From Methanohalobium evestigatum Z-7303 (GTDB lineage Archaea > Halobacteriota > Methanosarcinia > Methanosarcinales > Methanosarcinaceae), in NCBI RefSeq assembly GCF_000196655.1, contig NC_014253.1, positions 682,001 to 746,000 of the forward strand: a stretch of DNA of 64,000 bases, read 5' to 3'. Under the pieces are notes generated by a model. That model ran no database searches and was not told the DNA's origin. It saw only the letters and a program-made list of their open reading frames with translations. The position numbers and the translations under genes were made by a program. This document shows positions 39,388 through 42,137 of the stretch, piece after piece (position 1 is the first letter of the stretch; the number at the start of each line of letters is the position of its first letter).

Positions 39388-39960
39388 ATGTGCCCTGAAG
39401 TATGCCCGTGGTGGCTCTATTTTGTACTGGATAACAGAATCCGTAAATCTATACACAAACCTGAACAAATTCTGGATAATTATGTCAAACCCGGACAAAC
39501 AGTTATGGATTTTGGATGCGGACCCGGTACATACACAATAGATATGGCACAAATGGTAGGTAGAAACGGTAAAGTTATCGCGGTAGATTTTCAGGAAAAA
39601 ATGCTTGAAATACTGGAAAAAAAGTGCAAAAAAGAGGGTCTTGAATCAAGGGTTAAAATACATCAGAACAATCCTGAAAGTATAGGTGTTTCAGAAAAAG
39701 TGGATTTTGTACTGGCTTTTTATGTTATCCATGAACTTCCAGCCATAGATAATTTTTTCGCGGAATTGAAAACTATTGTAAAACCAGAAGGTCGTCTGCT
39801 GGTGGTTGAACCAGAGGTGCATGTAAGAAAACATTTTTTTGACAGTATAGTAAAATCATCAGGAAATCATGGATTTGTTCCACAATCAAGAATTAATATC
39901 AGGTTTAGCCGTGCGGTTTTATTTAAAAATGTAACAAATAAGTCAACTACCCCTCCCTAA
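39388..39960 (+). CDS. SAM-dependent methyltransferase, tail altered by the adjacent element
   Basis: 190 residues, class I Rossmann methyltransferase: MCPEVCPWWLYFVLDNRIRK at the start is characteristic of a family often beside metal-stress genes; SAM motif VMDFGCGPGTYTIDMA near residue 40; AVDFQEKMLEIL; LAFYVIHELP; GRLLVVEPEVHV. The family usually ends soon after a strand like RFSRAVLFKN. Here that is followed by VTNKSTTPP, whose last codons lie in the left end of the IscB element, so the C-terminus is probably rebuilt by the insertion. It is likely still active. Confidence 0.85.
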   Translation: MCPEVCPWWLYFVLDNRIRKSIHKPEQILDNYVKPGQTVMDFGCGPGTYTIDMAQMVGRNGKVIAVDFQEKMLEILEKKCKKEGLESRVKIHQNNPESIGVSEKVDFVLAFYVIHELPAIDNFFAELKTIVKPEGRLLVVEPEVHVRKHFFDSIVKSSGNHGFVPQSRINIRFSRAVLFKNVTNKSTTPP

Positions 39961-39980
39961 CTGAAGCAAATGCTTCAGTT
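39959..39980 (+). repeat. Left-end hairpin of the IscB element
   Basis: Arms AACTGAAGC (39959-39967) and GCTTCAGTT (39972-39980) pair without mismatch around AAAT. Such subterminal hairpins mark the ends of IS200/IS605 elements. Confidence 0.7.
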
Positions 39981-40262
39981 GAGGAAGGAGCTTGTTTCCA
40001 TAAAGCAAGTTCCTGGTTGACCAGACCACTGGATACCGGTTGAACATGTCAAAGAAAAGTCCAGTAAACGATACCGGAGAATACAACAGTAGTCACCCTG
40101 GGATGTCGCCTCAGTCCCTTGCTCTGAGAGTGCAGTTTAAAGAGTTCCGGCGGGGTAGGAACAGTGACTGTACTTTTAAACCTCCGGTAATCCGGTCGAG
40201 AGGAAGTCGGAAGTCAGGACTGAACCCCGGCAAGTCCTGACCTACGCACAACTCCCTTGAGG
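39959..40262 (+). ncRNA. Probable omega RNA of the IscB system
   Basis: Non-coding, GC-richer than its surroundings, with several foldable segments. These are the left hairpin at 39959-39980, a second with arms near GGAGCTTG and CAAGTTCC (39987-40012), a CCGG-TAAT-CCGG motif near 40185-40198, and a perfect nine-base-pair stem GTCAGGACT / AGTCCTGAC (40213-40241). IscB omega RNAs lie directly upstream of iscB, and the guide is taken from DNA just outside the left end; here that would be the methyltransferase 3' end. Assignment rests on position and foldability; I have not matched a covariance model. Confidence 0.65.
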
Positions 40263-40276
40263 AGGAATTACAAATG
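40252..40276 (+). promoter_or_regulatory. Hairpin that may hide the iscB ribosome binding site
   Basis: CTCC (40252-40255) can pair with GGAG (40261-40264) in the iscB ribosome binding site GAGGAGG. The ATG is at 40274. The stem is only four base pairs, so the effect is uncertain, but it is placed where it could keep translation low. Confidence 0.35.
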
Positions 40277-41497
40277 CGTGTATTTGTTTTAAGCAAAAAT
40301 AAGAAACCGTTAATGCCTACGAGACCAGCTAAAGCCAGAAGATTGCTGGAATCCGGTAAAGCAAAGGTCGTCAGAAGGTCTCCGTTTACTATCAAATTGT
40401 TATACGATACAGCAGAGTACACCCAGCCTGTAATTGCCGGGATGGATTCCGGCTCAAAACACATCGGGTGTGCTGCTGTTGCTAACGACGAAGTACTGTA
40501 TCAGTCTGAAGTCGAATTGAGAGATGACGTGTCAAAGAAAGTACAACAAAGAGCCAGTTACAGGAGAAACAGGAGGTCAAGAAAGACAAGGTACAGAAAA
40601 CCGAGATTCAACAACAGGGGAAATTCCAAGAAAGACGGAAGAATAGCTCCATCCATCAAGAGCAAAGTGCAGTCCCACGAAAGAGAAAGAAGATTCGTTG
40701 AATCCATCCTACCTGTTAAGAAATGGATAGTAGAAACTGCCTCATTTGATATACACAAAATCACAAATCCGAATGTATCAGGTACAGATTACCAGAACGG
40801 TGACCTGAAAGGATACTATAATATCCGAACCTACGTACTCCATAGAGACAACTATACATGTCAAAAATGCAAGAACAGGTCGAAAGACCCAAAACTTGAA
40901 TGTCACCACATCGTGTTCAGAAGTAAAGGTGGGACCAACAGACCTGACAATCTGATTACTCTCTGTGAAACCTGTCATGGCAAGTTACACAACGGTAAAT
41001 TTACTATAAACAAAAAACCGTCTAACACGAAACACCCAACAGAAATAGGTATAGTCAGGTCGCAGATAAGAAAACTGAACTGGAAGTTCCAGGAAACATT
41101 CGGATACATAACCAAATACAAGAGAGAACAGATCCTTGGTCTGGAAAAGACTCATTACAATGATGCTGTAGCAATCTGTTGCGATGAGAATAACCCAAAT
41201 TTACAGTTATCCAACGTTGTATATTACAAGAAACATGTAAGCAGTGGAGATTACCAACAGACTAAAGGTATCAGATCCGACAAGAAAATACCGACAGGAA
41301 AACTTCACGGATTGAGAAAATTCGACTTTATAAAAACTCCAGATGTTTCCGGGTTCGTAAAAGGCAAAAGAACATCAGGAAATTTCAGCATCATGGATAT
41401 ATTCGGAAATACTTTTAAGAAAAACCCTAACGTTAAGAAGAACTGCAGGAGAATCTCGGCTAGATGTACAACTCTGACTCAACAAATACAAATCTAA
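40274..41497 (+). CDS. iscB: IscB RNA-guided nuclease (RuvC/HNH)
   Basis: 407 residues, the ancestor-like relative of Cas9 that uses an omega RNA to cut DNA. The PLMP domain is at the start (KKPLMPTRPAKARRLLESGKAKVV). RuvC-I Asp is in GMDSGSKHIG near residue 56. The Arg-rich bridge helix is QQRASYRRNRRSRKTRYRK, RuvC-II Glu is in VETASFDIHK, and the HNH domain is near residues 185-240 (CQKC, CHHIVFRSKGG, TLCETCH). RuvC-III is in KTHYNDAVAI near residue 292, and a basic target-interaction domain ends the protein. All catalytic residues appear present, so it is probably active. GAGGAGG precedes the ATG. Confidence 0.92.
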   Translation: MRVFVLSKNKKPLMPTRPAKARRLLESGKAKVVRRSPFTIKLLYDTAEYTQPVIAGMDSGSKHIGCAAVANDEVLYQSEVELRDDVSKKVQQRASYRRNRRSRKTRYRKPRFNNRGNSKKDGRIAPSIKSKVQSHERERRFVESILPVKKWIVETASFDIHKITNPNVSGTDYQNGDLKGYYNIRTYVLHRDNYTCQKCKNRSKDPKLECHHIVFRSKGGTNRPDNLITLCETCHGKLHNGKFTINKKPSNTKHPTEIGIVRSQIRKLNWKFQETFGYITKYKREQILGLEKTHYNDAVAICCDENNPNLQLSNVVYYKKHVSSGDYQQTKGIRSDKKIPTGKLHGLRKFDFIKTPDVSGFVKGKRTSGNFSIMDIFGNTFKKNPNVKKNCRRISARCTTLTQQIQI

Positions 41498-41503
41498 AAG
41501 ACA

Positions 41504-41547
41504 GGTCGCATTCCTCTCCCAGCTCGCGCAGGGAGTCTCCTGCGACC
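41504..41547 (+). repeat. Right-end hairpin of the IscB element
   Basis: Outer arms GGTCGCA (41504-41510) and TGCGACC (41541-41547) and inner arms CTCCC (41516-41520) and GGGAG (41531-41535) fold around AGCTCGCGCA. It lies seven bases after the iscB stop and marks the right end; histidine-kinase sequence begins directly after it. Confidence 0.7.
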
Positions 41548-41549
41548 AA

Positions 41550-42137
41550 TTGGATGAACGGATTCGGGAACTGGAACTTCACCATCGGATTAAGAACAAT
41601 TTACAGATTATAAACAGTTTAATAAACCTGCAATCTGAAAATTTTGATGATGAAGATGTTATTAATGCATTCAGAGATACTCAAAACCGTGTCTCTTCGA
41701 TGTCACTGGTTCATCAGAAACTGTACCAATCTCAAGAATTAAACAACCTAAGTTTAAATGGTTATATAAAAGACCTTGCTGAAAATCTAAATGACATTTA
41801 TGGTGGGAACAACACCAAAATTAATGTTGATGTGCAGGACTTCCACTTAGGAATTGATACTATAATTCCTCTTGGGATGATTGTCAATGAAATAATTTCA
41901 AATTCTTTAAAATATGCGTTTTCAGATGATGATAACGGGATTATTAACATAGAATTTAACAGTAACAAATGCTATGTTTTGATTATAGAAGACAACGGAA
42001 AGGGAATCCCCGATAATATTGATATAGAAAATCCTGGCACACTTGGATTACAGTTAATAAATACTCTTGTAAAACAGTTAAATGGTGAAATCGAATTGGA
42101 AAGAAAGAGTGGTACCAAGTTTATTATAAGATTTTAA
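41550..42137 (+). pseudogene. Histidine kinase fragment without a sensor domain
   Basis: 195 residues holding a dimerisation/phospho-acceptor domain (LHHRIKNNLQIINSLINLQSE, HisKA_2 type, with the His in HH) and an ATPase domain (EIISNSLKYAF N box, DNGKGIP G1 box, GTLGLQLI G2). In this family a PAS or other sensor region precedes the acceptor helix. Here it stops about eight residues before it, exactly where the IscB element ends. The start would be a TTG at 41550 with no ribosome binding site, and the frame stays open back into the element. It looks like the 3' part of a gene cut by the insertion. Confidence 0.7.

What the first reader, a model, noticed from the sequence alone, without database searches (positions are those of the whole stretch)
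39942..41547. Complete IscB / omega-RNA element in a methanogen
All IscB parts can be read: PLMP domain, three RuvC blocks with their acidic residues, bridge helix, HNH, and a basic end. A 300-base foldable GC-rich leader lies directly upstream, with end hairpins on both sides and no tnpA. Archaeal IscB loci are much rarer than bacterial ones as far as I know. Guide sequence would come from the DNA left of the element, here the methyltransferase 3' end. This would be an RNA-guided nuclease from a salt- and anoxia-adapted host.
Basis: partly seen in the sequence, partly recalled or inferred. Interest (0 to 1): 0.8.

Follow-up and report, generated by a model that had tools for sequence, protein, structure and literature searches.

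The report
Mobile IscB RNA-guided nuclease in methanogen
This is a complete, recently mobile genetic element of a known kind: it makes a small Cas9-like nuclease (IscB) with its own guide RNA in a salt-loving methane-making archaeon, and its five copies show where it jumps, although one copy has lost its original guide through a nearby deletion.

Summary
Window 39942-41553 (1612 bp) is a complete IscB/omega-RNA unit. The RNA matches Rfam HEARO (91.9 bits, gathering score 83). The 407-aa protein matches NCBIfam guided_IscB (357 bits, cut-off 175), with catalytic residues intact, and an AlphaFold model matches solved IscB structures best. The host genome holds five copies with identical tips; one is 99.6% identical to the window copy. 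Two sites are empty in a same-genus genome, which fixes the ends to the base: the unit starts GTCAAC, ends CCAATTGG, makes no target duplication, and sits immediately before ATGAA, the predicted target-adjacent motif (TAM). All 17 clearly ended insertions of the window's lineage and its nearest relatives, and 11 of 12 of a second lineage in the family, precede RTGA. No unit has tnpA beside it.

Two corrections. IscB is not rare here: 17 of 101 genomes of the host's family carry it, and archaeal IscB-HEARO is published. The "guide from the methyltransferase 3' end" is secondary: against the same-genus genome, about 1.04 kb left of the element is gone, including the front of a histidine-kinase gene, so this copy's guide no longer matches its insertion site. 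New member of a known kind; cleavage untested.

The parts
39926..39941 (+). Predicted 16-nt guide of this copy (AAAATGTAACAAATAA), from the 3' end of the methyltransferase gene; not the guide of the original insertion site
   Evidence: Lies immediately 5' of the HEARO match and the element's left tip. In the same-genus genome this sequence is followed by ATAAA, not ATGAA. No other guide-plus-TAM site in the own genome above control.
39942..41553 (+). Whole mobile IscB element (1612 bp), tips GTCAACTACC...GACCAATTGG
   Evidence: Five genomic copies with the same tips; empty sites for two of them in a same-genus genome.
39942..40211 (+). Omega RNA scaffold (HEARO, RF02033)
   Evidence: 91.9 bits against a gathering score of 83; fold z-score -5.16; covariation in 28 of 55 pairs.
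39958..39981 (+). Left-end hairpin, part of the omega RNA
   Evidence: Minimum-free-energy fold; its sequence recurs as solo end remnants in the genome (L007, L008).
40274..41497 (+). iscB, 407 aa RNA-guided nuclease
   Evidence: NF040563 357 bits; PF14239 and HNH; PDB IscB matches by sequence and by fold, 8csz E 1.3e-25; dN/dS 0.05-0.06 against the intact copies in the genome.
41504..41547 (+). Right-end imperfect hairpin (GGTCGCA...TGCGACC)
   Evidence: Conserved in all copies, and resembles (reverse-complemented) the left end of resident TnpB units at L009 and L010.
41554..41558 (+). Flanking ATGAA: insertion target and predicted TAM (reverse complement TTCAT)
   Evidence: Follows the right tip in all 5 full copies and in a relative; GTGAA at a right-end fragment; present in both empty sites as ATGAA or GTGAA.
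41550..42137 (+). Truncated remainder of a HisKA_2 histidine kinase gene interrupted by the element (its own sequence begins at 41554)
   Evidence: In the same-genus genome the orthologous kinase is an open frame of at least 475 aa whose first part is missing here.
39388..39960 (+). SAM methyltransferase gene at the left edge; its last codons and stop come from the element
   Evidence: The ortholog ends ...FKNVTNK-stop; here it reads ...FKNVTNKSTTPP-stop.

Best explanation
It is an IscB/omega-RNA (HEARO) insertion sequence with IS200/IS605-type ends and no transposase of its own. Shown: it has moved recently in this genome, inserts immediately 5' of ATGAA without duplicating the target, and carries a conserved guide-RNA scaffold and a nuclease under purifying selection. 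Inferred: transcription from the left flank makes a 16-nt or longer guide joined to the scaffold. IscB uses this RNA to cut DNA that matches the left flank and is followed by a TAM of the ATGAA (RTGA) type, that is, the element-free allele left after excision or present on a sister chromosome. Repair from the occupied copy then restores the element. A Y1 transposase encoded elsewhere in the genome would supply the movement. In the window copy a left-side deletion of about 1 kb has replaced the original guide with the methyltransferase 3' end, so it no longer matches the ATGAA site at which the element sits.
For: Protein family and fold. HEARO match here and at all the other full-length IscB loci tested in the host family. 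Fold and covariation. Five copies, one 99.6% identical. Two empty sites contiguous across the junction in the same-genus genome, and one shared occupied site. TAM tally found by searching the element tip with no assumption about the flank: window lineage 6 ATGAA and 1 GTGAA of 7; close relatives 10 of 10 ATGAA; second lineage 11 of 12 GTGA. RTGA agrees with the NNRR TAM of OgeuIscB (PMC9640706). dN/dS 0.05-0.06 between the intact copies of the genome. Two intact Y1 transposase genes elsewhere in the genome, none beside any IscB in the family genomes with IscB. Left-side deletion.
Against: No transcript, cleavage or transposition was measured. The transposase that moves it was not identified, and the transposase-bearing elements looked at have somewhat different end pentamers. 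The window copy's present guide has no matching target with an ATGAA/RTGA TAM in its own genome, so this copy may now be idle as a homing device.
Confidence: 0.9

Rival explanations
1. A dead relic of an IscB element: the ORF is still open by chance and neither the RNA nor the protein works.
For: Sister copies are broken: L002 has a stop and L003 a frameshift, and end fragments exist. The guide of the window copy was replaced by a deletion.
Against: All catalytic residues and the RNA structure are intact. dN/dS is 0.05-0.06 against two other intact copies at dS 0.8-1.0. The nearly identical copy L002 shows very recent movement.
Confidence: 0.08
2. A domesticated host function (defence or gene regulation) rather than a selfish element.
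For: Strong purifying selection. One copy is shared at the same site by two species-level genomes (L005 and L141).
Against: Multiple copies with element tips, empty sites, different flanks and recent movement are what a mobile element gives. No guide match to another gene with a TAM was found for the window copy.
Confidence: 0.04
3. On the sub-question of the deletion: it arose by recombination between two element copies inserted at neighbouring sites, rather than by transposase or nuclease action.
For: The deletion stops at the element tip within one or two bases, as it would if a second element had sat at the left breakpoint.
Against: The left breakpoint in the same-genus genome is followed by ATAAA, not the ATGAA/RTGA that virtually all sampled insertions have.
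Confidence: 0.3

Closest known systems
IscB / HEARO elements (OMEGA systems; OgeuIscB and relatives)
   Same: PLMP, RuvC I-III, bridge helix, HNH, C-terminal TAM-interacting region, HEARO RNA directly upstream, guide at the 5' end, purine-rich 3' TAM. PDB fold matches 8csz, 9liq, 9k30 and 7xht.
   Different: Only about 18-24% identity in the structural alignment to solved IscBs. 407 aa rather than 496 for OgeuIscB. The RNA is 270 nt over the HEARO model's 211 positions, with enlarged loops. Archaeal host.
IscB of marine gammaproteobacterial plasmids (Pseudoalteromonas pMEGA, Shewanella)
   Same: About 60% identity over the whole protein, HEARO upstream, GTCAA start. Annotated by RefSeq as RNA-guided endonuclease IscB.
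   Different: Bacterial plasmid hosts; different right-end hairpin.
IS200/IS605 insertion sequences (Y1 TnpA, TnpB)
   Same: Subterminal hairpins, pentanucleotide at one flank (TTCAT on the bottom strand), related pentamer TTGAC at the other tip, no target duplication; ends resemble those of resident TnpB units.
   Different: No tnpA; carries iscB in place of tnpB, with the guide at the opposite end.
Second IscB lineage in the same genome (L016, L017)
   Same: Same architecture, GTCAA tip, HEARO at 141-150 bits, TAM GTGAG or GTGAA.
   Different: About 33% protein identity to the window copy; separate deep branch of the tree.

Membership tests
IscB (RNA-guided HNH/RuvC nuclease) | Curated family model over its cut-off | tested here: met
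   NF040563 357 bits, cut-off 175
IscB (RNA-guided HNH/RuvC nuclease) | PLMP motif, RuvC catalytic D/E/H/D, bridge helix, HNH | tested here: met
   PLMP at residues 12-15; D58, E154, H294, D297 invariant in 35 sequences, matching D61/E193/H340/D343 of OgeuIscB (PMC9640706); helix 86-102 and RuvC strands in the model
IscB (RNA-guided HNH/RuvC nuclease) | Fold of IscB | tested here: met
   Model pLDDT 75, best PDB matches are IscB-omega RNA complexes, E 1.3e-25; whole-chain rmsd is large, so domain placement is uncertain
IscB (RNA-guided HNH/RuvC nuclease) | Omega RNA (HEARO) directly upstream | tested here: met
   91.9 bits at 39942-40211; covariation
IscB (RNA-guided HNH/RuvC nuclease) | TAM next to the insertion site | tested here: met
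   RTGA in 28 of 29 distinct insertions searched without assuming the flank; two empty sites
IscB (RNA-guided HNH/RuvC nuclease) | RNA-guided DNA cleavage | not testable with these tools
   Needs a biochemical assay
IS200/IS605 family insertion sequence | Y1 transposase (tnpA) inside the element | tested here: not met
   None in the element; two intact Y1 genes elsewhere in the genome; none adjacent to any IscB in family genomes
IS200/IS605 family insertion sequence | Subterminal hairpins, fixed target oligonucleotide, no target duplication | tested here: met
CRISPR-Cas9 (type II, including II-D) | Cas9 protein with REC lobe over its family cut-off, CRISPR array and crRNA | tested here: not met
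   407 aa; Cas9d model scores 31.9 bits against a cut-off of 375; guide RNA is HEARO. A dedicated array search was not done.

The most novel reading that the evidence does not exclude
The nuclease took part in the neighbouring deletion and thereby re-aimed itself: an imprecise repair event at the IscB tip removed about 1 kb, gave the copy a new guide, and left it able to cut the ancestral allele at the deletion's left edge (same guide followed by ATAAA). If so, adjacent deletions would be a natural way for these elements to change target.
Probability: 0.1. Interest if true: 0.6.

Novelty: new member of a known kind. Interest (0 to 1): 0.36.

Why it matters
It gives a ready natural system for IscB biology in archaea: five copies in one probable extreme halophile, three of them with intact genes, exact ends, a predicted TAM (ATGAA/RTGA), empty sites in a sister species, and a second IscB lineage in the same cell. 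A halophile's IscB may be unusually stable in salt. The re-aimed window copy shows how the guide of such an element can change by deletion of its left flank.

Tried and rejected
The primary papers on HEARO and on IscB function were not in the library, so statements about them rest on PMC9755519, PMC9640706 and general knowledge. A search for the guide plus TAM elsewhere in the genome found nothing above the reversed-pattern control. Looking for a resident transposase with the same end pentamers was inconclusive: the tnpA/tnpB unit L013 and the TnpB units L009/L010 end in TTCAC with a TTTAT-like flank, near to but not the same as TTGAC/TTCAT. Relocation of the missing 1042 bp was rejected: only distant kinase paralogs (64-77% identity) remain in the genome. 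The TAM tally was discarded because its pattern demanded the TAM; one search was used instead. The idea that the element is restricted to archaea was rejected: marine bacterial plasmids carry 60% identical proteins.

Full report
WHAT IS THERE. The window holds an open frame of 407 codons at 40274-41497 on the + strand. NCBIfam names it guided_IscB at 357 bits (cut-off 175; the Cas9d model gives only 31.9 bits, far below its cut-off of 375). Pfam gives RRXRR (220 bits) and HNH. Its best sequence matches among solved structures are IscB chains. In an alignment of 35 relatives the RuvC residues D58, E154, H294 and D297 are invariant; they correspond in order and context to D61, E193, H340 and D343 given for OgeuIscB (PMC9640706). 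An AlphaFold model (mean pLDDT 75, pTM 0.68) has IscB-omega RNA complexes as its best PDB matches (8csz, E 1.3e-25). Whole-chain TM-scores are moderate (0.5-0.6) and rmsd is large, so the model supports the family but not the relative placement of domains.

THE RNA. The stretch 39942-40211 matches Rfam HEARO over the full model at 91.9 bits against a gathering score of 83. The other IscB units scanned (17 from the host family or the same genus, one from Methanobrevibacter) all carry a HEARO match; only L006, a right-end fragment without a leader, has none. The leader folds at -118.8 kcal/mol against -92.5 for shuffles (z -5.16). Across 19 related leaders, 28 of 55 consensus pairs show changes on both sides with pairing kept. 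The relatives are a clade, so cells are not independent events, but the amount and the agreement with a published model leave little doubt.

EXACT ENDS, MOBILITY AND TAM. The host genome (2.41 Mb) contains five full copies. Their common part starts with GTCAACTACC and ends with CCAATTGG (CCAATTG in one copy); flanks differ entirely except that ATGAA follows the right tip each time. The window copy is therefore 39942-41553. Copy L002 differs from it at 6 of 1612 positions, one of them a stop codon in iscB. In a same-genus genome (G005) the sites of L002 and L004 are empty and read straight through the predicted junction with no duplicated bases; the L005 site is occupied there as well, so that insertion is older. 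Searching for element tips without assuming the flank gives RTGA next to the right tip in 28 of 29 distinct insertions in three groups: ATGAA in the window lineage and its close relatives (one GTGAA), GTGA in a second lineage (one GGGA). RTGA fits the NNRR TAM of OgeuIscB (PMC9640706). On the bottom strand the flank is TTCAT and the other tip TTGAC, which is the layout of IS200/IS605 ends (general knowledge of that family), and resident TnpB units have closely similar ends.

TRANSPOSASE. No Y1 transposase gene lies in or beside the element. The genome has two intact ones and one broken one elsewhere. In the family genomes that carry IscB, none lies beside an IscB gene, and two such genomes have none at all. 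Movement by a transposase acting from elsewhere is an inference. PMC9755519 also reports that few HEARO nucleases sit near TnpA.

SELECTION. Between the window copy and the intact copies L004 and L005, dN is 0.04-0.06 at dS 0.8-1.0, a ratio of 0.05-0.06. The nuclease has been kept functional while these copies diverged. The orthologous pair L005/L141 has dS 0.04, so the paralogs are far older than the split of the two genomes.

THE WINDOW COPY HAS LOST ITS FIRST GUIDE. In G005 the methyltransferase ends in its own stop codon, followed by spacer and an intact PAS/HisKA_2 histidine kinase open over at least 475 codons. The right junction of the window element lies in that kinase, before the ATGAA of ...KNERIREL. 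The left junction lies at the end of the methyltransferase, so about 1042 bp between the two points is missing. No close copy of it remains in the genome; only paralogs at 64-77% identity are found. The sequence now at the guide position, AAAATGTAACAAATAA, is followed in G005 by ATAAA. Whether recombination, transposase or nuclease made the deletion is open.

HOW IT WORKS, AND WHAT IS INFERRED. Shown: architecture, ends, insertion rule, recent movement, selection, the deletion. Inferred from the characterised members of the family: the omega RNA with 5' guide loads IscB, which cuts a matching sequence followed by the TAM, that is, the element-free allele, so that repair from the occupied copy keeps the element. 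Not shown: transcription, cleavage, the transposase used.

KINSHIP AND NOVELTY. The nearest named organism is a Methanohalobium MAG. That, together with the genome size and my own recollection of Methanohalobium evestigatum, suggests that genus; this is an inference. IscB is over the cut-off in 17 of 101 sampled genomes of the family and 19 of 393 of the phylum; one genome has 19 matches. The own genome carries two IscB lineages placed far apart in the tree. Plasmids of Pseudoalteromonas and Shewanella carry about 60% identical IscBs annotated as such, also with HEARO upstream, so exchange between domains is likely. Archaeal IscB-HEARO has been noted in print (PMC12988326). This is a new member of a known kind.

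Noticed in passing
L009 and L010 (G000:C1:1623278-1626316 and 1313332-1316370): Resident TnpB units have a left end (TTTAT flank plus a CGCAGAAGACTCCCTGCG hairpin) and a right tip (GGTAGTTCAC in L010) very like the two ends of the IscB units, which suggests a shared mobilisation system.
   Followed up: partly
L036, L134, L135, L142, L033: In some relatives the iscB stop codon TGA appears to be supplied by the flanking (N)TGAA target motif itself, so the nuclease gene is closed by the site it inserts into.
   Followed up: no
G031 (L025, L116-L130): One family genome carries 19 matches to the IscB model, most of a second lineage with near-identical tips and GTGA flanks: a rich natural set for guides and TAM.
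   Followed up: partly
L026 (G005:C161): A second-lineage IscB unit appears to be inserted inside the iscB gene of a first-lineage unit in the same-genus genome (left flank GTAGTGTACTACAAAAAACAT is iscB sequence).
   Followed up: no
L006 (G000:C1:1152540-1152761) and L007, L008: Solo right-end and left-end remnants of IscB-like units, including one with a GTGAA flank.
   Followed up: no
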